64,000 bases of DNA from assembly GCA_003194525.1 (NCBI GenBank), contig NBIV01000048.1:248001-312000 (forward strand), read 5' to 3'. This DNA comes from Gracilariopsis chorda (taxonomy: Eukaryota > Rhodophyta > Florideophyceae > Gracilariales > Gracilariaceae). The translations under genes were made by a program, and so were the position numbers. Position 1 is the first letter of the stretch, and each line of letters opens with the position of its first letter. This document shows positions 20,118 through 47,500 of the stretch, one piece after another. The notes beneath the pieces are model-generated. The model did not search any database. It saw only the letters and a list, made by a program, of their open reading frames with translations, and was not told where the DNA came from.

Positions 20118-23100
20118 TTAGGAAGCTAACGAATTTTCAAGCTTGCCACTCAAGATAATTTTGTTCGGGTACGCTACGAAAGTGAGTGCAGACCGTGCTG
20201 CGGTCTGAAAGGGAAAATGTTCGACGAGGGACTTCCAGAAGTTCGAGGTTACCTTGGGATCGCGATCACTGACCAGTGTATGCGGTACACCGTGGACAGA
20301 AAACAGATGAACGTCGAACAAATGGGCGGTTTCTCGGGCTGTGGCGGTCTTCGTAGTCGGTACGAAAATTCCTTGTTTGGACAGCTTATCAACCATCACT
20401 AAGATCGCGTCATTTCCGGCACTGGAAGTTGGGATTTCCGTGAGGAAATCAAAGGTTACGATCTCCCAGCAACGGTTTGGGATAGAGAGAGTTTGTAGCA
20501 AGCCTTGCCGGAGGCGGTTTGATGACTTGTTCGTCTGACAGTCGCGACAGTTGCGTACGTGTTTGGAGATCATCTCATACATGTGAGGCCAGAATACGTA
20601 CTTCTGTGCCACATAATGCGCTTTGTCGGCATGTACATGTCCTATTCCATGGAAGTAATGCGTCACTGTATGACGAAGATCGGTTGAAGGAATATACAAT
20701 CTGAGCGAACCTGCGCCAGTCCAATACAGCATGTCATTCGCGATTCGAAAATTGCATTGATGACGCAGGTGTCGCGAAGCGTGGGGAGCATTTCGGTAGC
20801 GAACGAATCGTCACTGTAGGCATTACGGACTGATGCCAAGAGTTTAGGGATATGTATCCCGATGGAGCGAAGGTGGGGGGCGTGGTCGGGTCTTCGACTG
20901 AGTGCATCTGGTACAACGTTCAACCGTCCGGCAATGTGTTCGATGTCGAAGGTGTACTCCTGAATTTCGTCGAGCCATCTGCACTGCCGGCCGGTAAGCT
21001 TCGGCTTCGAGTGCAGATATCGAATCGGGTCATGGTCAGTGCGTAAAACGAAATGTCGGCCACGTAGATATGGGGCCCAAGCACGAAGGGCAATCATTAC
21101 AGCAAGGAGTTCTTGGTCTCCAGTGTCCCATCGCGACTCAGTATCCGAGAGGCGATGGGAAAGGTATGCGATGGGGTGACTGTCTTGCGAGAGGGTCGCC
21201 CCGACTGCGTACTTCGAGGCGTCAGTTGTCAAGACCAACGTCTTGTCTGGAGAATAATGGGCGAGGACGGGAGCGGTGGTTAGGGCTAGCTTGATTGCAT
21301 CAAACGCTGACTCCTGTTGGGCAGTCCACTTGAACTCATGTGATCGCAGTAGGTCCGTCAGTGGCCGGAGTATGTGAGCGTAGCCCTTAATGAAGCGGCG
21401 ATAGAAGTTCGTGAGGCCCACAAACTGTTGAATGTGACGTAAGTTCTGTGGGGTAGGCCAGTCTCTGACTGACGCAGTTAATCTTTCCTGGGGGGATACT
21501 CCCTTATCCGACACATGAAACCCAAGAAAATCTACTTCCTTCACACCAAAAGCGCATTTGCTGAGCTTGGCGTATTGTTTGTGCTTACGTAAAGCCACGA
21601 ACACCTTTAGTAGATGCTCTTTGTGTTCTGTTATCGATTTGCTGTATACCAATATGTCATCAATATACAGAACCAGACATTCTCCATTTAGGTCCTTCAG
21701 TGCTGATGCAATCAGCCTTGAGAAGGCGGCTGGAGCATTCGTTAGTCCAAAGCATAGGACCTTCCATTCGAACGATCCGAAGCGGGTTCGGATGGCTGTC
21801 TTGTGACAATCTTCGTCACGAATGCGCATCTGATGATACGCACCTACTAAGTCAATCTGGGAGAACACTTTCGCGCCAGCAACTTGATCCAGAGCCTCGT
21901 CGATGACGGGTAATGGGGTGGAATCAGGTATGGTAATTCGATTGAGAGCGCGATAGTCGCATACCATTCGTAACTGACCACTCTTCTTCCTGACAAAAAA
22001 CACCGGTGCACCAAACGGGGAGGAAGAGGGTCGAATGAGCCCTTTGCGGAGGAGCTCATCCAAGGCGTTGCGAAGCAGCTGAAGTTCTTCATTGGACAAT
22101 CGGATGACTGGAAGAACTGGCAGTGGCTGATCCTGGTTGAGATTTATCTCAAAGTTCTGTTCCCGGCGTGGGGGAAGCTCGTACGGAAGCTCTTCCTTGA
22201 AGACATCGCGGAATGTGTCAACGATGGCTGCCAATTCCGGATGACAGTCAACAGCGGTTGAAGGATGTTGTAACCGCAGTGCATACAACTCACAAGCTCG
22301 TTGCTTGACGAGCTTGCGCAGTCGTTTAAGGGAGATTGTTTTCATCGTGCGAGGCTTTGGTCGGGCTGACGCCGCCGTATTGTGACGGGGATATAGTGTA
22401 GCCGTTGAACCATCTGCGCGCTTGATGGTCATTGTGTGTGTCTTCCAGTCTACGTGCGGGTTGAGTACGCCCAACCATTCACGTCCTACTGTCATGAGAG
22501 GAGCACCGTCATGCTCTTCGTTCATCTCGATGACAAAGACAGATACTGTGGCGTAAGTTTCTTGCAGGTCCACTTTGGCTGAAGTTTCATGCAACACAGG
22601 AATCAAGCTGTGATCGCCAAGTTGCGCGTGAGCGCATGCAGAAGAATGGAGTCGGAGTCCGCATCGTTTTGCGGCAGCCGGGGACATAAATGCGTGCAAA
22701 GCGCCGGGATCCAGGTGGAATGCAACACGGACACCGTTGACATATGCGTGGTATATTATGTCCTCGGAGTAGTGCGCATTGACTTCGGAAAGGCAAGGAA
22801 AGGTGTCAACTCGAACTGAACGAGCCGCACTGGCGTGCGGCGTGGTTAGTTTTTTGGTTTGTTCTTCAACGGCTTCTGCGCGGAAGCAGTAGCAACTGTC
22901 ATACGACAAGGATGCTTCGGATCACTCCAGGGTTTCTTTTCACATTTCATACAGCGGTTGTGGCTGCGGTATTTGTCAAGCTCAAGATGGTTCTGGAAAT
23001 CGGCTGGATCCCACGTTTCGTCGTCTGGATCTTTGTTGATTGCCACAGCACTTAGCGGTTTCGTGCTACGGCGGGCTGGACGTTGCGAGCGATTGACGTC

Positions 23101-29044: not shown

Positions 29045-29136
29045 TGTGAATCAGCATTACAGTAGAACAAAAGATATAACACAGAGCAGGGCAATTTCAC
29101 GAAGTAAAGCAAGACGAGCAGAGTCTTCCTCTCACA
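29045..29136 (+). repeat. 5' LTR of copia element E
   Basis: Only 92 bp, from TGTGAATCAG to CCTCTCACA, with inverted TGTGA/TCACA tips. It matches 33507-33598. Confidence 0.8.
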
Positions 29137-33506: not shown

Positions 33507-33598
33507 AGCCAACCAGCATTACAGTATAACACAAGATATAACACAGAGCAGCGCAAGCTCACGAAGTAAAGCAAGACGAGCAGAGTCTTCCTCTCACA
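33507..33598 (+). repeat. 3' LTR of copia element E
   Basis: It matches 29045-29136 from its eighth base (CAGCATTACAGTA) to the final TCTCACA. The first seven bases have diverged. It is followed by the target duplication TGCAC. Confidence 0.8.
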
Positions 33599-33603
33599 TG
33601 CAC

Positions 33604-35090
33604 AACAGAGTGGAGGCAGACTTAGAGAGAGAGAACTCCTTGATTTTTCATGGCTGTTCGTTCGCCATTTAGTAGTCGGTAGTCTTCCGCGTGTTCGAGC
33701 AACCGATGGGTTTGGCGACGGAGCGAACGGGACGCAGAACCGGGGAGCTAGCTATTGCGAGCGGCAATTAAGTTGTTTGTCGAAAACGGAAACACAGAAG
33801 CGCGCCAAGAAAGCACCGTTTCAACTCGACTTTGCAAGAGAGCACGGCTCTGTAAGGGTGGGCGGTGACGGAGAGAGACACATGTCCACGTGCGAGATCT
33901 CAACCGGCTCTTCCCGCAATCGCCTCAACTCCGACCCCGCCGAAGATGTGAGTAGGAAGCATTACCCCCCTTTCATTTCCGCTCGTCGACGCATCTGCTC
34001 TAGCTAGCTTAAGTAGCTTAGGTACCAAAGGTACCAACGGTACCCTTGGTACTGTTCGTGCTGTAATGTTTGAGAAGAAGAGGAGAGACATTTAGACAGC
34101 ACAGCAGGCCTTGCTCGCCTCGGTTTTGGCGCAAATGCTGACGCCGCCACCTCTGATATTCCCGTTCCTATCGTCAATCTGATCAAAACACCCTCGCTTT
34201 TCGGCGCGTTTGGTCTCCTACCCCACTACATTCTCTTTGACAGAGATGATCTCGACCCCCTCGAAGACATAGTTGATTATGACGCAGACTTCGTTGAGAA
34301 CCACTTTTGCAGCGCAGCATGCCATCGATTTCCAGGTCCTCGAGCACTTGAGCACTCAGTGTAGTGGCCAAACCCTTAAGCCATGTCAGATTCTTTATTG
34401 AGCAGTTCCGCTTAGTGGCCAAATTCTTCAGCCATGTCAGGTTCTATCTTAAAAAGGTCCCTCCTGCCCCGCACGTGCCTCTATTTGCGATAATGCGGTA
34501 TTAACTTTCTAGAAGTAGAAGGTTAATCATCTATTCGACGGCTAAATTTCACTAATAGACCCAATCCCATCTCCATTTGGCTCCCTCTTCCGGTGTAACT
34601 TCAGTCTTTTGTCGCCTTTTCGGAAGGTCGGCACACCTCGACCGTCGGAACTGCTTGTGCCCAGCTTGAAGTGTAATGCCGGTGTCTTGCCGTTTACAGC
34701 TCACGTTCGCCCATCGAATAATGATGCACTCAACAAGCTTTGTGATACGACAGTCGCATCGTGGCTTTCTTTGTTTATTTTTGGCGTTACGCAGCGTAGC
34801 AATCTCACATGCTCTAGCCGAAACTGAGAAAAGAGATTTTCGCCCTTCACGTTGTTCTAACGCGAAAGTGCGTCCTACTTGGCGCTCGTTCCTGCGGTGA
34901 GAGACGGCGTTGCTTGGAACAGACAACTAAAGAACAAAGGATTAGTGTGGCACGTTTGACTCTGCAGAGGTCAATACTAACTGCCAGATTAGGCGCTGAC
35001 TTCACACTTTTGACGCCGTAAATGAGAACTACAACAATTCACTCACGCGTACGATAGTACATTCGACTTGCAAATTTTATAGAGACCAGA
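33604..35090. other. No confident gene; short direct repeats
   Basis: Several plus-strand frames are open (33777-34007; an ATG-less frame at about 34105-34363 reading LFGAFGLLPHYILFDRDDL), and one minus frame (34552-34926, 124 residues, basic, Cys/Arg-rich). None is recognised. A cluster of GGTACC-type units lies at 34020-34052. An approximately 50-bp direct repeat (AGTGGCCAAA...CAGCCATGTCAG-type) occurs twice at about 34361-34440. The polar DFVEN...acidic stretch could be a host exon, but I cannot support that. Confidence 0.35.
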
Positions 35091-35227
35091 GTCCATATTA
35101 CCAGGTCTTCAGCACCCGTCACTGTATCCCAGGCCCATTCTACGGCAAATGCTTACCGGCACTACCCGAATCGAATCGAATTGAATGGCTCGGTACCTCG
35201 ATCATTCACCTTTGCCGCATTGACAAC
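35091..35227 (-). pseudogene. Decaying fifth cysteine module, downstream of the stop
   Basis: Immediately 3' of the stop codon of the 35228-36343 gene, the DNA still matches the linker part of the 228-bp repeat (VVNAAKVNDRG, then PFNSI). It then matches only loosely to the cysteine part. The stop arises where the other repeats have CAA (Gln) and this copy has TAA, so the gene once ran on into this module. The rest of the module has lost its cysteine pattern. Confidence 0.7.
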
Positions 35228-36343
35228 TTACTTGCTGGATGTTGCGCCTAGCTTGCCGGATGTTACGCCTCGCAGATTCGGCTCTAGCATGTGCATGGCC
35301 CTGCAAATCTTACACAGATCAGTGTCGCCAGCATCCGAGTTCCAGCACCCGTAACTGAATCCGCCGTCCAATTCACGGCACATGTCTAACAACACTCCTC
35401 GAATCGAATTGAATGACTCGATACCTCGATCATTCACCTTTGCCGCATTGACAACTTGCTTGCTGGATGTTGCGCTTAGCCTGCCGGATGTTACCCCTCG
35501 CAGATTCGGCTCTAGCATGTGCATGGCCCTGCAAATCTTACACAGATCAGTGTCGCCAGCATCCGAGTTCCAGCACCCGTAACTGAATCCGCCGTCCAAT
35601 TCACGGCACATGTCTAACAACACTCCTCGAATCGAATTGAATGACTCGATACCTCGATCATTCACCTTTGCCGCATTGACAACTTGCTTGCTGGATGTTG
35701 CGCTTAGCCTGCCGGATGTTACCCCTCGCAGATTCGGCTCTAGCATGTGCATGGCCCTGCAAATCTTACACAGATCAGTGTCGCCAGCACCCGAGTTCCA
35801 GCATCCGTAACTGAATCCGCCGTCCAATTCACGGCACATGTCTAACAACACTCCTCGAATCGAATTGAATGACTCGGTACCTCGATCATTCACCTTTGCC
35901 GCATTGACAACTTGCTTGCTGGATGTTGCGCCTAGCTTGCCGGATGTTGCGCCTAGCTTGCCGGATGTTACCCCTCGCAGATTCGGCTTCAGCATGCGAT
36001 AGTCCATGGCCCTGCAAATCTTACACAGATCAGTGTCGGCAGCACCCGAGTTCCAGCACCCGTAACTGAATCCGCCGTCCAATTCACGGCATATATCGGT
36101 CAGATCTCCTGGGATGATGTTGCCGCGGGAGGACACAAAAGTACGAGTCCAGTGGAAACGGCCAACGTCAACATGACGAAGTGTTACCATCGCGATCAAT
36201 GCAACTGCTGCGAGGCACAGGACGGGGCGCAACCCAAAAGACATGCGTTTCAAAAACGGTCTGGTATGAGAAGAGCCGACTTGGCTCGGAAGCTCTCGAT
36301 CCACCTGGACGGGAATCGCCTCATACTTACCTTCGGTGTTCAT
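35228..36343 (-). CDS. Membrane-anchored protein with four tandem four-Cys modules
   Basis: This is a 371-residue protein from the ATG at 36341-36343; the frame is open for 20 more codons upstream but without an ATG. The polar amino end (1-37) is followed by one hydrophobic segment (about 38-55, LRPVLCLAAVALIAMVTL), a signal anchor or uncleaved signal. Four modules follow with spacing C-x10-C-x10-C-x2-C: Cys 85/96/107/110, 170/181/192/195, 246/257/268/271 and 322/333/344/347. Core wording is CRELDGGFSYGC then DTDLCKICRAM. Modules 2-4 repeat every 76 residues (228 bp) and are almost identical in DNA; module 1 is longer by 9 residues, 7 of them a duplicated SGKLGAT. The even cysteines suggest either disulfides in a secreted or lumenal domain, or metal binding. 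No RXLR or other known effector motif is seen and I do not recognise the family. AAG/GTAAGT occurs at codons 4-6, so an intron cannot be excluded. Confidence 0.75.
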   Translation of the reverse strand: MNTEGKYEAIPVQVDRELPSQVGSSHTRPFLKRMSFGLRPVLCLAAVALIAMVTLRHVDVGRFHWTRTFVSSRGNIIPGDLTDICRELDGGFSYGCWNSGAADTDLCKICRAMDYRMLKPNLRGVTSGKLGATSGKLGATSSKQVVNAAKVNDRGTESFNSIRGVLLDMCRELDGGFSYGCWNSGAGDTDLCKICRAMHMLEPNLRGVTSGRLSATSSKQVVNAAKVNDRGIESFNSIRGVLLDMCRELDGGFSYGCWNSDAGDTDLCKICRAMHMLEPNLRGVTSGRLSATSSKQVVNAAKVNDRGIESFNSIRGVLLDMCRELDGGFSYGCWNSDAGDTDLCKICRAMHMLEPNLRGVTSGKLGATSSK

Positions 36344-36484
36344 CTCGTCCTTTCGACGGCGCTGGCGGTCAAGACTTAAGGGCGAGGCGAAGAACACGAA
36401 CAACAGAGTGCAGCCAAGCTGTTAATTCCAAGAGTGTACAACCAAGCGACTTGTTCCAGAGGGATTCAAAGCGAAAGGCTGCCC

Positions 36485-36492
36485 TATTTATA
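36485..36492 (-). promoter_or_regulatory. TATA box of the cysteine-module gene
   Basis: On the minus strand the sequence reads GGTATAAATAGGGC, a strong TATA match, about 140 bp upstream of the ATG at 36343. That leaves room for a start site and a 5' leader of about 110 bases. No other gene start is near. Confidence 0.6.
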
Positions 36493-36645
36493 CCACACAC
36501 CACTTGGTGCTCTTAACATATGGTCCAAGCACTGCAGATCACGATCTCGATTCAAGGTGTTGCAACCAAGCCACCAGAGCGTGTAATGGTGTGCACCACA
36601 CAGAGTTGCACGATTACAAAGCCGAGTCAAACGTTCTTTCTTACT

Positions 36646-36745
36646 GGAAGCAGTTTGCTTCTTGCTTCCTGGAAGCAGTTTGCTTCTTGCTTCCTGGAAG
36701 CAGTTTGCTTCTTGCTTCCTGGAAGCAGTTTGCTTTTTGCTTCCT
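36646..36745. repeat. Four 25-bp direct repeats upstream of the cysteine-module gene
   Basis: Four head-to-tail copies of a 25-base unit start at 36646, 36671, 36696 and 36721. The first three are identical and the fourth has one substitution. Each unit contains the inverted repeat GAAGCAGTTTGCTTC. The array lies 150-260 bp upstream of the TATA box of the minus-strand gene. Confidence 0.9.
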
Positions 36746-36759
36746 GTAATGAGTACGGC

Positions 36760-37609
36760 CTAAGCCAGTGATGCGCTTACACTATGTCAAATATGTTGCT
36801 GCAGAGATATCATTGGTATACGTGCACGACATGCTGGCGTCTTGGGTCTCGCGAGCAGCAGCGGCGAAGCGCAGCCGGACTGTTACTCCTTGAATAAAGG
36901 GGGGGTGCAGCAATGTTCGCGACGAGAATACTTGAAATTTCATCCAAACATAAGCTTTTCGCTATTTTAAGAAGCTGGAATGCAGATCAGTGGTAGAAAG
37001 TCTAAAACTTCTCAAAATCCTGCGGATAAAAAAAATAAAAATCTCAAGTAGGAATATCTTTGAGAGGGTGACCGGTAGTGTAATGCTATGAAACATACAG
37101 TATTTGCCACATCGAAGTAAAGGGCTGAGAGTGATGGTAGTGATTCGATGGATTCGAAAAGGCTTGGGTTTGGTAAGAAAGTGTACGGGGGATCCGGGAG
37201 AAGGTGGTTTTGGATCTTTGGCCAAGATATTAGTCTATCGTCCTGAGGGGACTTAGTAACTAAAAAAAAAAGGGTGAGTTGTATCATGTCCGCCAGCTGA
37301 GAGTACCGCTCGTCTTCTTGGGCGACTACCGACCAGGTGAGCCTACCAGCTGTGCGGACTCTTTCAAGGAGTTTCCTGTATTGGGTAAGTGATGCATGAG
37401 TGATTGGCTTCAGCTGTTGACAAAAGTTGATGACAGGTTACGTTCTTATCGCTTAAGAATAATTGTGGATTACAGGAGAATAATATCTTTCTCTTCTATA
37501 TATAGTTACAGAGACTTGAATTGTTTTGAATTGTTCATGTCAGGTTTACAGACCAGTTTGGACATGAAGTCTTATTTTTTGTCTACTTAAGGCGAAGTCA
37601 ACAGTATGC
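36760..37609. other. No confident gene
   Basis: Minus-strand frames at 36962-37225 and 37012-37287 overlap in different registers and have no recognised content. The rest is AT-rich. Confidence 0.4.
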
Positions 37610-38251
37610 TCAGAGCAAAGGTGAGATATCCAAGTCGTGATCAAGTAACATCGGCAACATTTTGCAGAGCTTTGCTGCTTTCGAAGAACCGAATAGATCT
37701 TTAAGAAGCATCCGCTGAAACGGCGAATCATGATGGTTGATGAATGGAGGTTGGAGTTCGGAGGGTAGTCTTGAGATCCATTGCATGGCGTTGCATAGGT
37801 TAGGAAGAGATCTGTTTGCTGGGAGAGCGATTCTATCGGCGTTGAATCTGTTGAAGAGACCTCGGGAGAATAAGCTGGCTGAATTCACAAATATTTCTTG
37901 AAGTTGATCCTGAAGGGGTTTTGTGGAATTTGGGTGAAAGACGTAGCTTGGAGTGAGTTTTGTGTCAAATTGAGAGTCATGGAAACGTGACCAAAGTGTA
38001 GATTGGGTTGAGATGTGCAAAGGGGTAAGCCTCTCCCCGTTGTGATATGCAGAAGACGGTAGGGTGGGACCATGGTAAAGGTGGGAGAGTGCGACGAGTG
38101 CCAATCTTACTTCAACGACATCTGCAGTTCTGGAGTTGAAGTGATGAGGGATGTGCTTCTTAGCCCGATACTTGGCTTGGCTTACTTCTGCGCGTGGACT
38201 TTCTTCTCTCTCAGAGAGTGGTCGCTTCGTCTTTCCTGTCTTCCGAATCAT
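37610..38251 (-). CDS. Unrecognised 213-residue ORF
   Basis: An open frame with an ATG at 38249-38251 has a basic, charged start (KTGKTKRPLSEREESPRAE) followed by a globular-looking sequence with regular hydrophobic spacing (for example NLCNAMQWISRLPSELQPPF). No membrane segment, signal peptide or known domain is recognised. At 642 bp in moderate-GC DNA it is longer than expected by chance, so it may be a host gene or a single exon. Its start lies 113 bp from the LTR of gypsy element A2, which may have replaced its promoter region. Confidence 0.4.
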   Translation of the reverse strand: MIRKTGKTKRPLSEREESPRAEVSQAKYRAKKHIPHHFNSRTADVVEVRLALVALSHLYHGPTLPSSAYHNGERLTPLHISTQSTLWSRFHDSQFDTKLTPSYVFHPNSTKPLQDQLQEIFVNSASLFSRGLFNRFNADRIALPANRSLPNLCNAMQWISRLPSELQPPFINHHDSPFQRMLLKDLFGSSKAAKLCKMLPMLLDHDLDISPLL

Positions 38252-38637: not shown

Positions 38638-39433
38638 TGAAGTGCAATACCCTCAGAGGGGGATTCTTGGTACTTTGTTGATTTCCCGAATGTTTCGGTG
38701 ATGTAGTCATTGCATGAACTACAACCACTAATAGTGGATTTGACACGTGAGACACGGAAGAGTCAATTGGCGGTTGGCCACAGTAGTGGGCATGAACCAC
38801 CAAAGTGGAGTAATTTAGATAATTCTATTTATTATTTTTACACCCATTTCTGGGATTGTTAGTACTTAGTGCGCCGGCGGGTTGCCATCGCACTAGTAAA
38901 CCTTCCCCAACAAGGGACCCCAACCTGGGGAATTGTCTATAGACCTCACCGCCTTCGCTTGTTCTCTACTCTTCTTTGGAGGGAAGCACCGTCGCATACG
39001 GGAAGTCTAACCCCCTTGCATATTCAAAGGACCCGAGCATTCGGATTTTTATTCCAGCTGTCTTGGTGTTCGCCTTGTATAAGGTTTATTTACCGGCACT
39101 GCCGTTAGTCTTCGTCACGATACTCGTGACCCAGCTCCTCCTTATTTTTCCCTTTACAGGGTGGCTTTCCCGCTACCCACGGCTTGTGTTCACGCGTTCC
39201 ACTAACGATGAAACCTCACCTTTCTAGAAGAAGACCATCCCCATACACTGCTCCTGCGGATACCGGATTATTGCCTCAACCTCCCTGCGCAAGTCGCGAC
39301 GGGTGGCCTCGGCCTTACAATCCGACATAGTCATGCCACTCCTGGGAGGGCTTTATCCAACTGGGCTCACCTCCAACGAGGAAAGATTTCGAACGTCTTT
39401 CGGTGCATTCCCGCTTCCGGGAATTGCACTACA
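38638..39433 (+). repeat. 5' LTR of gypsy element B1
   Basis: A 796-bp LTR from TGAAGTGCAATACCC to TTGCACTACA, the same length as and about 97% identical by eye to 59313-60108. The inner tips AGTGCAAT/ATTGCACT are inverted. Confidence 0.95.
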
Positions 39434-40165
39434 AAGTGTTCTCCTGACGTGGAATGTGTTTTGGTGTTTGGTTCGCTCTTACGAGGTTTTGTTTCTTTTG
39501 TTTGTTTTCCGGAAATTCCGTTGTTTTCCCGTCGTAACGTTTGGCCGTCATTTCGAGGAAGCACTCCTCCGCGGAGCCTGCGACTACGCGCAGTCGCTCC
39601 CACAATGGTGGAGATAACCGCGATTTTCGGTTCGTTTCTCGGATCCCGACTAGGGCTAAATCCAGCCATGCTAGGGGTGCCTCGTCTAGGACTCCAAACC
39701 CACCCCGGGAACCCCGGAACTCCACGTCGACCCCGTTATCGAATGCCGTGGATGGTGCTCATCCGGCTCTGGCCGTGGCCGCCGCCGCACCTGCACCCCT
39801 TCTGACGGCCGATAACACACCCAGGGGAATTTCCTGGAATCTCAGGTTCACGCTTTGTGGACCGCCCACGACACCCGTGTCGGGGAATTACAAACCCTCT
39901 GTGAGGTAGTGCTGGACACCCCTACAAAGGGGGTCGAAGAGGATCTCCGTATCTTACGGTCCGACGTCAACTCTATGTTAGAGAGTTTGGGGCAACCCGC
40001 CACCTTCATAGAAGGAGTTGACTCTCGATTTGATCGAGTTCCTGCCCGTCTGGAGACGTTAGAGCAGTTTATCCTCATGAAAAAACCGTCCCCGGATGAT
40101 CCGGCACCAGCTGCGTCACACCACAACCAGCATGTTGGAAGAAAGAAGCGCCGCTATAAGCGGAA

Positions 40166-41047
40166 TGTGGTGCAACGCCCCAAAGGGGAGAAGCACCGAA
40201 AGACGTTCGGGATCTTTCCTCCGTGGAGGTGAACCCAGTTGGGTAGAGCCCTCCCAGAGGTGTCACGGCGAAGCCGGTTTGTAAGACCAGGGACACCTGT
40301 CGCGACTCGCGCAGGGAGGTGAAGGCGAAGAATTGGTATCCGCGTGAGCGGGGTGTGATCCTCAGTAGAGGTATGTTTCCACGTAATTGGGGGTGTGTGA
40401 GCGGATGCGCACACGAGGGCCGCGGATAGCGGGAGGTGCTACCCTAAAAAGGGGAAAAAGAAAGGGCGAAGAGGAGGAAGAGAGGACGAAGTGAGTCGCG
40501 AGAGCGACGGGGACGAACGGCAATGCCGGTAACAATATCCCTATACAGGGCGAAACACCAATGCATTGGAATAATATGACTCCCAGTGATGGGTCGCTTT
40601 AGATGTGCAAGGGGGTTAGATGTCCCGTGGTTCACGGCGTTTCCCTCCAAGTAGGAGTAGAGCACGCGCGAAAGCGGTAACAACTAGAGCCAATTCCCCT
40701 GGTTGGGGTCCCTTGTTGGGGAAGGTTTACTGGTGCGACGGCAGTGCACCGTCGCACTAAGTACTAGCTTCCCAGAAATGGGTGTGAAAATAATAAATAA
40801 TATTAATTAAAATACTCCACATTTCGTGGCAACATCCACTACTGTGGCCAACCGCCAATGAACCCAAAACCGTGTCCCACGTGTCCATATCCACCATAGT
40901 GGGACGTAGTTCATATACACACTACACATTGTGTAGTGTGTATATGAACTACGCTTTCCTGATATTATCGGTTGTGTAGTACACAACCGATAATATCGGG
41001 AAAGCGTTCAATTACCAAGAATCCCTCCCTGAGGACGTTGCACTACA
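40166..41047 (-). repeat. 3' LTR of gypsy element B2 (882 bp)
   Basis: On the plus strand it runs TGTGGTGCAACG to GTTGCACTACA. It is 56 bp longer than its partner because of a double palindrome at 40906-41006. The CGGAA duplication precedes it. Confidence 0.9.
40906..41006. repeat. Two adjacent palindromes in the B2 3' LTR
   Basis: Palindrome 1: perfect 23-bp arms (40906-40928 and 40930-40952) around one base. Palindrome 2: 26-bp arms (40952-40977 and 40981-41006) with one mismatch around AGT. The 5' LTR (near 50052-50094) has only the single unfolded sequence from which all four arms derive. Confidence 0.95.
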
Positions 41048-41520: not shown

Positions 41521-44500
41521 GGCCGTGCCGGGTGGTGGTTGTACTTCCTTGCGGGTGCTACCCGCTGTGCGGTATAATGTCCCTTAGCAGGGTGTTCGGC
41601 GATAACTCCGGCGTTGCCCTGCGCTGTGATAGCGGCCGCTGCTCATGCGGGAAGATATCCCTCAAGAGGGTGTGTGGTGCCACGGTTTCCACCGGTAAGT
41701 CATTCCCCATTGGGGCAAGTTCATTTCCGCTTTCGCGGTATTGCGGGCGAACCGCCAGTCGGCGGGGGACTTGAACTCCACGAGTGCTGTCTTCTTCGCA
41801 AACCGCGAGCTTGCGGGGTCTTTGCCGCGTATGCGGGAACGGCGTTTGCGACATCCACTGCCGGGTCCCGTGTGACACGGTGATTGGTAAGCGTTCCGCC
41901 TCCCTGCCAGGTGCACGAGCGCTCTGCACCATACGTTCCGGCGACGCCGTGGTGTCCCCGGCTACTGACGGGTTGGCTGGGGCTAACTCCGGTACACCGG
42001 TATTTTGGTCAAAATTCCCCTTTGGGGGGTGCCGGGCAGGTGCCGATGACACCCTTTTCAGGGGAATTGCGGCTAAGCGCGGTGCACCGTCTCCGTGAGG
42101 AGGGGCAGCTTCCGGTACGACCGGTTTCGAGCGTGCGATGGCGCGCGTTTTTCCCGAGTTCCGCGGTTCTTCGCCGCGGCGTTGCGGGGGTTTGCGCAAA
42201 TTATTCCCCGGAGCTGGGGCTTCGATTCCGTCGACGACGGGAGGCGTTTCTGTCGCTTGCGCGCCAGGGCCTGAAGCTTCGACTGCGGCTTGGCAGCCTT
42301 TTCCCCCAAGAGCGGTGTGGGTATTTCCCTGTGAGGCTGGCGTATCTGGACGCCTCTTCTCCGCGGGGCGCGGGTCTGCTGGACCTAATTGAACCACTTC
42401 CGCTGGGGCTTCCGCCAATGGCGGCTTCGATGCATCGCTCTGCTCAGGGGATTGGGGGCAATCGTCACCATACTCCCTTATCGGGGATCCTTCCCTGACA
42501 GGGGTGTGCGGTAGTTTCGCTTCAACTTCCCGTGTAGCACGGTATATTTCCCGCGTTTTTGGCGATGCCTCCGGGGATGGATCGGGCGATTGCATTTCCG
42601 CTGCTGCGCTATTGGAGGGAGGCTTCTCGTTTTCCCGTGACAAAAGGTGTATTTGCCGCTTTTGCGGGGCCTGCGCGTCTGGTTCCTGTTGCACAGCACT
42701 GCCCGAGAACGGGGGATTAGTGTCGCGTGACATACTTTGTGCTCCACGGTCGGTGTTCCGTATGTTACGGTGTGTTTCCCGTTGCGACGGCGATATCGTT
42801 CCTCGAAAACGAGTGTTCTCCTCCCCCTCCTTAGACGGAGCGGCGGGATAGGGGATAACATTCCCCGCCTGGCGGATATAAATTCGGCCAGGGGGGCGGG
42901 TGTGGTAGGGGCGGGCGCTGAGAGGCGCGAATTACCCGGCTGAGCCGGTGAGTCCGACAGGGTCGGTAGGTCTGAGAGTCCCTGGCTGGGGTGTGGTAGT
43001 ACCGTAGGCCTAGTATTCCCGGATGATTCCGGTGTTGCAGAGTCCGTAGAAACGGGGTTGCCTGGATCCAGGACTACCTCTGATGAGGGAGGAGGGGCAA
43101 GGACAACACGATCACGGGAAATCCGCTCGTGCGTGTCGCCCATCTCTACCACGACAGTGTCGGTGTTTACAGAGATGACCTTGAATGGTCCATCCGCCAC
43201 AGGCGAGAGTTTATGGCGCTTCTCCAGTTCCGGGTTGTAGTACTCCTTCCTGATGAAGACGTAGTTATTCGCCCGAATCGGGGACGGTTTCCCTCGCAGG
43301 CGAGCATCAAAATCCCGCTTGTAAGCGGCTTGGGCCCGTGCCATCGACATCCGCGCAGCGGGGACCAGCTTGGAAAGCCATTGCTTCCATTGCTGCCGGT
43401 AGATACCCACAGATGGGAAATTGTCCAAGGTAGCTTGGGGTTTCAACGCCACAGGCGGGGGTGTTCTAGATAGAACCAACTCGAATGGCGAAACTCCGGT
43501 AGTCCGGTGTACCTGTGTATTGTACGCGTAGGTTACCGCATCAGCGTACATGTCCCAGTTCTTTGGGTGGTCTGCGACGTAGGAACTTAACGCTGCGAGT
43601 AACGTCGAGTTAAACCGTTCACCTTGCCCATTACACTGGGGGTGGTAGGTAGTCGTGAACAAGTTCTTGACATCCAGGATGCGACAAACATCCTGGAAGA
43701 ACTTGCTAACGAACTTTTTCCCGTTATCGGAGAGCACCTCCACAGGGGGACCGTAGACGAAAATCCAGTGCTTCACCAGAGCCTGGGCCACCGTGAGAGC
43801 GGTTATCCCCGAAGAGGGACAGTCCGTACCAGCTTAGAAAAGCGGTCGGTAATGACAAGTAGAAACTTGTTTCCACGTTTCGTGGTGAGTAGTGGTCCGA
43901 GAATATCGATCGCGATAAACTCGAGCGGCGCCCTTGCGGGGAATAGTTTCATCTTCTTAGCATTTTTGCGGGGTTTCACGCGATTCTTCGCGCATTCGCT
44001 ACAAAACCGCACGGTTGCGTAGCAATCCATCGCCATGGCGGGCCAATAGAAATCCCTTCGCAGGGTTAGGTAGAGTTTCCTCCCACCTGGGTGACCTCCA
44101 ATGGGGGCGTAGTGTGATAGATGTAACACCCGCGACTGCAGGGAATGAGGTACCACAATCTGTGGGTGGGCTTCGACCTTCCGTACGAGGTAGCCTTTGT
44201 CGTTTACCGCGAAAGGGAGATCTTCACCACCGTTGATACGGGCATGAACCCTCGTACAGAATGGGTCTCCGAAGTCTTCTCGGATCATTTCTTCCCGTGA
44301 TACCGGTACAAAGTTTCCCGGTAACGGGTTCTCAGATTCATCTCGCGATGCGAGTAGTTCGTCAAAGTCAGCATCCTCGTCCCAGTTTTCTGGCCCAGCC
44401 TCGACGGCACATTCCGGATCATCCGGGTCTATAGCCATGAAACATGGGACTTCATCATCCTCCGTTGGGAGTGCTTCCCCACTTGTGGGTAAACGCGACA

Positions 44501-47500
44501 GGGCGTCAGCTTGGGTGTTCTGCGCGCCCTTTTTATAAATGACTTGAAAGTCATATTCCGCGAGGCGGAGTCTCCAGCGCATGAGGCGTCCCGACGGGTC
44601 GGAGATATTCATTAACCACCTCAATGAGGAATGATCCGTGTACACGGTGAAGTGAACTCCCATAAGGTAGGGGCGCAGAGTGGTCATCGCCCATACGACG
44701 GCGAGGCACTCTTTCTCCGATACGGAGTAGTTCCGCTCATGAACATTGAGCGAGCGCGACCAATAACCGATTGGGTGTCGTTCCCCGTCGGGGGTGGTTT
44801 GAAAAAGAGCACACCCGACTTGGTAGTCGCTCGAGTCCGTATCTACGGAGTATGGCAACCCACGTTTTGGGAGATGTAGGATTGGTGCTGATGTGACAGC
44901 CTCCTTCAAGGAGTTAAAAGCTTCCGATTGCTCGGGCGTAAATGTTCCCAGTTTTGGGGGGTTCCCCTTTCGCCACAACGTGTTTAGGGGCGCCGCGGTA
45001 TTCGAAAAGTTCTGGATGAACAGTCGATAGACGTTGACCAGCCCCAAAAAGGAGCGCAGTTCCGTTTGAGTACGGGGCTCTTTCGCTTCAGCGAGGGATT
45101 TGACTCGAGCTTTCTCGATCGCTAACCGTCCAGGACGGATAATGTGACCCAGATATCTCACAGTATCTGTGAAAAACTCGCATTTTCTCAACTTGAGGGT
45201 AATTCCCGCATCGCGGAGTACGGTCAGCAAGTCTCGAACGTGAGTGAGATGGTCGTCCAATGAGTTGGAGAAGATGATAATATCATCAAGGTAGACCAGA
45301 CAACTCCGCCACTTAAAGCGGTTGAGTAGAATATCTAATGCACGCTGAAAGGTGGCGGGGGCGTTGGTTAACCCAAATGGCATCCGCTTGAAGCGGTACG
45401 TTCCTGCGTGGCAGGTGAATGCAGTTTTGTCGCGATCCTTCTGTCTGACAGGTACTTGCCAATATCCCCAATTGGCATCGAGAGCCGTGAAAACGGTGGC
45501 GTCTCCGAGGGAGTCAGTACACTCGTCCATACGAGGGATAGGGTACGTGTCCCTAACAGTCACGGCATTGAGCCGGCGGTAGTCGACACAGAACCTCCAG
45601 GTTCCGTCGGCCTTCAAAGCCAGTACAACTGGGGATGCCCAGGGTGATTGAGCGGGCTCAATCACACCTGCGCGGAGCATCTTGTCCACTTGGGACTGCT
45701 CCTCTTCCCAAGCTTTCGGACCTGCCCTGTAGGGGGGTTGTGCAACCGGTCGCGCACCGGGGATTAAATCGATCCGGTGTTCCGTTGCATTAATCTCGCC
45801 AAGCGAGCCATCCCACATTGTGGTGAATTCCCGTAACATAGTACGGAGTTTGTCGCGGTGCGACTCTGGCACGTGGCTGAAGTCAAGCGCTTCAAGTGCC
45901 TTTTCCGGATCAATCCGGTCGTTGCTCGATGGAACATAGTCCTGTGGAACAGGTGTGGTTCGCAATTCCGAGCTACTCGGTATGTTCGACGCTGAAGTAG
46001 CGGTTTCCTCCCCCTCCTTAGACTTGACGTCTTCGGACGGCGGGGCGAACTCCTCAGAAGAGGTGGTAACTCCCAGTACATTGGCGGCTGTCATCTTCGT
46101 TGGCAGCATTCCCATAGGATGGGGGTTACACTCCCAACTACTTGGTGTTTTACCAGATACTGGGGGTGTTTGCCAAGGTTGGCAACCAATATCCGGAAAG
46201 GAACATCCGGGGAAATGGAGACAATTCCATTAGCCAGCGCCAGCTGGGATTTCTCGTACAGCGAGGCGAGGGGTTGTATAACCCGAAGACGTTGTTGACG
46301 GGAATTTACCTGCACCCAGACTTGGGACTCAGGCGGTATAGAAACCGAGGCCGCGACGCGGAGCTTGGTGGACTCGCGGGATGCGGGCGGTAGTTCCTGC
46401 GCAGCAGGGAGCGGAACTTGTTTCCGAGAGGACCGCTCTAGCGGGCGGCGAACAATCGGAACCGATGATCCCTTGTCAAGCTCTACACGCCTGAGGCGGG
46501 GCCTGATTGCGTCGACAAATCTGTCGCAGTAATCGCATCCCAGTATGACTGGTGCTGCCAATGAATGGCACACGACGAAGTCCAACTTCACCACAGAGGT
46601 ACCACGTCTCACGACGAGGTCCACTATGCCCACCGTTTGTAACGGATTGTTGTTCGCATCCGAAATGTCGGGGACCGCGTCAGAGCGGATACAAGACCGC
46701 ACAAGCGGGTGTATCAATGATTCCACAACAAAGTTGGGGCCGGCACCTGTATCCAGGACGGTGAGAAACCTCACCATAAACTGGGGATCAAGGCCAAGGT
46801 CGGCATAGACCTTGTAATTGCGCTTGGCCAAGACCAAGACTCTACCGGGAATCCGGGGATTTTTACTCCGTATCCACGGGCGACGCAACACACCGAGGTG
46901 TGCAGAGTCCGCATCAGCGGTGTCTTTCCTCGAGAGGACTTTCACCGGGGAGCGAGGCGAGGACGCCTCGGGCGTCAACAGCCTCTTGTCTGAGGACGCC
47001 TCTCCCCTTTGAGACTCCCTCAGTTAGTTTTCCGCCTTCGGCGGTTAGTTGGGTTCCTCGACAACGAGTGCTTCATCCCGTTGACGGGGGTTTCTATCCG
47101 CATAAGCGGGGGTTGCAACGGATGGTTGCGTGATCTCCTGAATCGGGGTGTATGAAGCTTGCCGCGCACGCAGGGTCTGTCGTAGGCATGGGAAAAGTAC
47201 GTTTTAGCACGGAGGTAGGAAGCCGTCGGGACGGAACCGTTTCTCCTCTGGAGTGAGGGCCTCATAATTTGCCACTACGTTGGCCATATCCTTCAGTGAA
47301 CAAATACACTGAGGTGAGGTATGGCCATGGGCATAGCACAGGTGGCAAATGAGAGCCAATACCGCGACACGCGGATTATTATTCCGAGTATCGGAGAGGC
47401 GAACCGCAGGGCGGGTGTCAGTCCATCCAGGCCGTTGATAACGGGATTGACCGTTTGAAAACGGGAGTCGTTGGGGTTGGACCCGACTGTTACCACTGTA

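What the first reader, a model, noticed from the sequence alone, without database searches (positions are those of the whole stretch)
35228..36343. New-looking membrane protein built of near-identical four-Cys modules
The only convincing host gene in 64 kb has a single hydrophobic anchor and four C-x10-C-x10-C-x2-C modules. Modules 2-4 are nearly identical in DNA over 228 bp. Such recent or homogenised duplication, in a repeat-rich region of what is probably a plant-pathogenic oomycete, is the setting in which fast-evolving surface or secreted proteins are found. The family is not one I recognise.
Basis: partly seen in the sequence, partly recalled or inferred. Interest (0 to 1): 0.75.

Follow-up and report, generated by a model that had tools for sequence, protein, structure and literature searches.

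The report
Orphan four-module cysteine-rich seaweed protein
A gene in the red seaweed Gracilariopsis chorda appears to encode a membrane-anchored protein with four nearly identical cysteine-rich modules and no relatives that we could find; it is a plausible orphan gene of unproven function, not an oomycete virulence gene.

Summary
In detail: an ORF of 371 codons (36343-35228, minus strand) has one hydrophobic segment and four C-x10-C-x10-C-x2-C modules; three successive 228-bp units differ at 3-6 positions. The organism is wrong: an LHC protein of the same assembly is identical to a Gracilariopsis chorda protein, so this is a red seaweed. Searches of the 91-Mb assembly found this locus only. 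No relative was found among 5.8 billion proteins, which include Gracilaria and Agarophyton proteins, and no accepted match in Pfam, NCBIfam or PDB sequences. Coding evidence is supportive, not decisive: a TATA box, a strong anchor, the best codon score of six frames (not significant), pN/pS 0.46-0.62 (not significant). Best reading: an orphan secretory-pathway or surface protein with disulphide-bonded modules, its array shaped by tandem duplication and homogenisation. Function is inferred. A functionless open frame remains a serious rival.

The parts
35228..36343 (-). ORF of 371 codons plus stop, ATG at 36343
   Evidence: the protein collection lists a 371-aa protein identical to it (self match)
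36227..36343 (-). N-terminal tail, residues 1-39 (6 K+R, 4 D+E); contains YEAI, which fits the YxxPhi sorting-motif pattern (recalled, not tested)
36179..36226 (-). hydrophobic anchor, residues 40-55
   Evidence: best 19-residue Kyte-Doolittle mean 2.13, residues 37-55
36014..36091 (-). module 1 Cys core, residues 85-110
35759..35836 (-). module 2 Cys core, residues 170-195
35531..35608 (-). module 3 Cys core, residues 246-271
35303..35380 (-). module 4 Cys core, residues 322-347
35243..35926 (-). three successive 228-bp units (linker plus module) with 3-6 pairwise differences
35058..35171 (-). decayed fifth module: 64% DNA identity, out of frame with the array, in-frame stop, third Cys lost
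   Evidence: by protein search only E 1.68 and 0.495; by DNA with part of its linker 79% to the other units, E 3e-31 or better
35911..35996 (-). 21-bp nested duplication in the module-1 linker (extra GKLGATS)
36485..36492 (-). TATAAATA, starting 149 nt upstream of the ATG
36634..36758 (.). 25-bp tandem repeats upstream of the TATA box
34663..36891 (.). stretch with no match elsewhere in the assembly, next to dispersed repeats on both sides
   Evidence: the DNA search skips simple repeats and very common words

Best explanation
A protein-coding orphan gene of Gracilariopsis chorda (or of a narrow group around it). The product enters the secretory pathway through an uncleaved N-terminal signal anchor (type II, short tail in the cytosol). 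It displays four small, probably helical, disulphide-bonded modules on flexible Ser/Thr/Gly/Lys-containing linkers in the Golgi lumen, the cell wall or outside, where they act as a multivalent binder, most likely of a wall polysaccharide or another glycan. The array was made by tandem duplication of an in-frame 76-codon unit and kept alike by unequal crossing-over or conversion; a stop in the fourth linker leaves an older fifth module untranslated and decaying. Shown: ORF, hydrophobic segment, modules, near-identity, no second locus found, no relatives found, decayed fifth module. Inferred: translation, topology, disulphides, location, ligand.
For:: ORF, anchor, four Cys per module; all four Cys and most of the core invariant in 4 of 4 modules; module 1 and the decayed module 5 share a short segment that modules 2-4 lack, so modules 2-4 look like the derived, amplified set; module 5 has lost its frame and a Cys, while module 1, also outside the amplified set, has kept all; of 682 simulated ORFs of at least 100 aa, 3 had an equally strong hydrophobic segment in the first 75 residues, 5 a TATA match within 200 nt upstream, 0 both; frame 0 has the best codon score of six frames (0.020 against -0.028 to -0.143); the ORF and its near flanks have no match elsewhere, so it is not a dispersed transposon; weak helical model of one module.
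Against: No transcript evidence was available. The codon score is not significant (95th percentile of 2,000 random 720-nt stretches of the window 0.039; host ORFs median 0.079). pN/pS of module 1 against modules 2, 3 and 4 is about 0.46, 0.62 and 0.50; for module 4, resting on about 14 changes, Fisher p is 0.31 on rounded counts. Only 1 of 32 host ORFs (open frames of at least 250 codons, not verified genes) has a TATA match within 200 nt, so the box is not a usual mark of genes here; the window has 15 such matches against 7.3 expected; and the comparison with simulated ORFs was chosen after seeing the gene. Structure models are of low confidence (mean pLDDT 60 and 40). Charges lie on both sides of the anchor, so orientation is open, and there is no N-glycosylation sequon.
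Confidence: 0.42

Rival explanations
1. A recently arisen or decaying open frame without function: a tandem repeat whose 228-bp unit is a multiple of three stays open once one unit is open.
For: No relatives found; codon score and pN/pS not significant; repeat-rich surroundings; stop inside the fourth linker and a decayed fifth module; 42 ORFs of at least 165 aa arose in 3.84 Mb of simulated single strand.
Against: Strong N-terminal anchor, TATA box and Cys spacing kept in 4 of 4 modules; module 1 keeps frame and all Cys although it is outside the amplified set.
Confidence: 0.33
2. A Golgi- or ER-resident type II protein with a luminal role in wall synthesis, not a surface binder.
For: Short hydrophobic segment of about 16 residues after a short N-terminal tail, the usual shape of Golgi type II proteins (recalled).
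Against: No enzyme domain above cut-off in Pfam or NCBIfam; location not testable here.
Confidence: 0.15
3. Metal-binding modules: each four-Cys module binds zinc on the cytosolic side.
For: Four Cys per module including a CxxC pair; sub-threshold Pfam matches to zinc-finger models, summed over the repeats (zf-C3HC4_5, E 7.1e-5, 23.1 bits against a cut-off of 27; RecR_ZnF, E 0.0029, 17.8 against 22).
Against: No single stretch of these models passes (0 stretches); spacing x10-x10-x2 is not a usual zinc-ribbon spacing (recalled); the modules follow a signal-anchor-like segment.
Confidence: 0.1

Closest known systems
Tandem cysteine-module proteins such as progranulin (chains of granulin modules; start of the abstract of PMC4527844 seen in the listing)
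   Same: A chain of small Cys-rich modules
   Different: Different Cys number and spacing (recalled), no sequence match found, membrane anchor here; no common ancestry is claimed
Pfam zinc-finger families zf-C3HC4_5 (PF17121) and RecR_ZnF (PF02132)
   Same: Short CxxC-containing stretches score weakly
   Different: Below the curated cut-off, no single stretch passes; not members
Oomycete secreted or surface effector families
   Same: Repeat-rich region, duplicated Cys modules
   Different: The organism is a red alga

Membership tests
Pfam / NCBIfam families | Score above the curated cut-off | tested here: not met
   10 matches at E up to 10, none above cut-off (best 23.1 of 27 bits); 4 matches at E up to 1, none above cut-off (best 24.8 of 90 bits)
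Solved protein families (PDB) | Sequence match to a solved chain | tested here: not met
   0 matches at E up to 10; (module profile): two serotransferrin chains at E 0.31, chance level
Solved folds (PDB, Foldseek) | Fold match of one module | tested here: inconclusive
   one match at E 9.3, from a model of mean pLDDT 60
Transposon-encoded protein | Dispersed copies or a transposon domain | tested here: not met
   no other copy found, no transposon domain
Type II signal-anchor membrane protein | Single N-terminal hydrophobic segment after a short tail | tested here: met
Type II signal-anchor membrane protein | C-terminal part in the lumen or outside | not testable with these tools
   charges on both sides of the segment
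Disulphide-bonded module protein | Even number of conserved Cys per module | tested here: met
   4 of 4 modules (the decayed fifth has lost one Cys)
Disulphide-bonded module protein | Disulphides formed | not testable with these tools
   needs protein

The most novel reading that the evidence does not exclude
The founding member of a Gracilariopsis-specific surface protein family whose module number changes quickly among individuals by unequal crossing-over, serving recognition (gamete contact, epiphytes or parasitic red algae).
Probability: 0.08. Interest if true: 0.55.

Novelty: new member of a known kind. Interest (0 to 1): 0.25.

Why it matters
If expressed, it is a compact case of a lineage-restricted gene with three stages side by side: an older module, a freshly amplified set and a discarded module. 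That would let array evolution be followed among isolates of a seaweed. As it stands it is one more unproven orphan gene.

Tried and rejected
Oomycete origin: rejected; the elicitin search carries no weight. Paralogues: the whole ORF (E up to 0.001), a 44-residue module and the N-terminal 124 residues (both E up to 10) found only this locus. Relatives in viral contigs: 32 pattern matches, none confirmed. The C43 stretch that resembles window 33705-34348, and 10 kb stretches of C48 near the window on either side, were checked for a relative of the gene: only chance-level tblastn matches, E 7.3 or worse, on L028 and L029 and none on L030. Structure: models too weak for a fold statement. The paper on the G. 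chorda draft genome (doi 10.1093/molbev/msy081, recalled) is not held. Literature: listings only, 10 of 19, 15 of 32, 12 of 30 and 5 of 5 papers; no title or abstract start among those listed is on this protein; of PMC10853006 only the passages were seen. A splice-donor-like GTAAGT overlaps the stop region (sequence printed); a spliced C-terminus was not pursued.

Full report
The observation. The minus-strand ORF at 36343-35228 encodes 371 residues. It has a 39-residue N-terminal tail, one hydrophobic segment (residues 40-55; best 19-residue Kyte-Doolittle mean 2.13) and four C-x10-C-x10-C-x2-C modules; there are no N-glycosylation sequons. Three successive 228-bp units differ at 3, 3 and 6 positions. 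Module 1 differs more: its Cys core is nearly the same, its flanks differ, and its linker carries a nested 21-bp duplication.

A fifth copy of the module lies just downstream (35058-35171, 64% DNA identity). It is out of frame with the array, has an in-frame stop and has lost the third Cys. As protein it scores only at chance level (E 1.68 and 0.495); as DNA, together with part of its linker, it matches the other units at 79% with E 3e-31 or better. The ORF ends at a stop inside the fourth linker; that linker differs from the first at 2 of the 70 nt printed, although it continues past the stop. Module 1 and the decayed module share a short segment absent from modules 2-4, so modules 2-4 look like a later amplified set between two older end modules.

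The organism. The window is 248001-312000 of a 383,193-bp contig in a 91.3-Mb assembly of 1081 contigs. LHC-type sequences are present: 15 matches over the cut-off, some of them probably pieces of one gene, 7 at E 2e-20 or better. One LHC protein, on a 261,561-bp contig, is 100% identical to a protein named by NCBI as Gracilariopsis chorda and listed on a contig of the same length; Gracilaria domingensis and Agarophyton chilense come next at 83% and 80%. This is a red seaweed.

Relatives. In the assembly the ORF DNA has one match, itself, and protein searches find only its own modules and the decayed one. Among 5.77 billion proteins the 371-residue query finds only itself at E up to 1 (only the 7992 candidates sharing most words were scored), and a 164-residue query finds nothing at E up to 10 (78 candidates). 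The same collection returns proteins of Gracilaria and Agarophyton for the LHC control, so near relatives are represented, how completely is not known; the method needs shared exact 5-residue words and limits length. Pfam, NCBIfam and PDB sequence searches give no accepted match; the best Pfam match, zf-C3HC4_5, has E 7.1e-5 summed over the repeats but stays under its cut-off and no single stretch passes.

Is it a gene? In favour: the collection lists a 371-aa protein identical to this ORF on a contig of 383,193 bp, which suggests that a gene finder called it; a TATA box starts 149 nt upstream of the ATG; of 682 simulated ORFs of at least 100 aa, 3 have such a hydrophobic segment in the first 75 residues, 5 a TATA match within 200 nt upstream and 0 both (a comparison chosen after the fact). 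The codon score is best in the true frame (0.020; other five -0.028 to -0.143) but below the 95th percentile of 2,000 random 720-nt stretches of the window (0.039); 31 host ORFs have a leave-one-out median of 0.079. pN/pS of module 1 against modules 2, 3, 4 is about 0.46, 0.62, 0.50; for module 4 Fisher p is 0.31 on rounded counts. Only 1 of 32 host ORFs has a TATA match within 200 nt, and the window as a whole has 15 such matches against 7.3 expected. I put the chance of a translated gene at about two in three.

Surroundings. The stretch 34663-36891 gave no match elsewhere in the assembly, apart from matches among the gene's own modules. To both sides lie dispersed repeats, a copia-type element to the left (RVT_2 above cut-off, rve and gag_pre-integrs below it; 88-bp direct repeats of 93% identity at 29049-29136 and 33511-33598) and gypsy-type ORFs with reverse transcriptase and RNase H domains at 20663-22909 and 43803-46115.

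Structure. A model of one module from the four-row alignment is helical (helices 3-19, 23-29, 31-34, 36-46) with mean pLDDT 60; the full-length model has mean pLDDT 40. Foldseek gives one match at E 9.3. No fold can be claimed.

How it most likely works. The most likely reading is a signal-anchored secretory or surface protein displaying four disulphide-bonded modules as a multivalent binder. Orientation, disulphides, location and ligand are inferences. That the array evolves by in-frame tandem duplication and homogenisation follows from the near-identical units and the shared states of linkers and modules, although an assembly error in copy number cannot be excluded.

Verdict. A sound observation with a wrong organism; an orphan gene candidate of modest interest.

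Noticed in passing
window 33705-34348 and L028:4785-5838: Window DNA resembles (three pieces, 69-86%) the stretch between two ORFs on contig C43, one of them Rad21-like by eye (not tested): a decayed segmental duplicate beside the gene.
   Followed up: partly
window 34471-34662: Repeat of about 190 bp with at least 13 other copies at 86-89% identity in the assembly.
   Followed up: no
window 36892-37047: Repeat of about 150 bp with at least 14 other copies at 73-89%, one of them inside this window (contig position 248728-248884).
   Followed up: no
window 38802-40823: Nested inverted repeats (arms 54-194 nt, 77-87% complementary, 0.7-1.9 kb between arms), foldback-like.
   Followed up: no
window 37610-38251: 213-aa ORF without a Pfam match, in DNA with copies of 76-85% identity on C75, C111 and C369: probably part of an undescribed transposon.
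   Followed up: no
L029:2659-3627 and L029:804-1328: Outside the window on the same contig: a eukaryotic-type carbonic anhydrase gene (Pfam Carb_anhydrase, 98.1 bits) and a second Cys-rich ORF with no Pfam match.
   Followed up: partly
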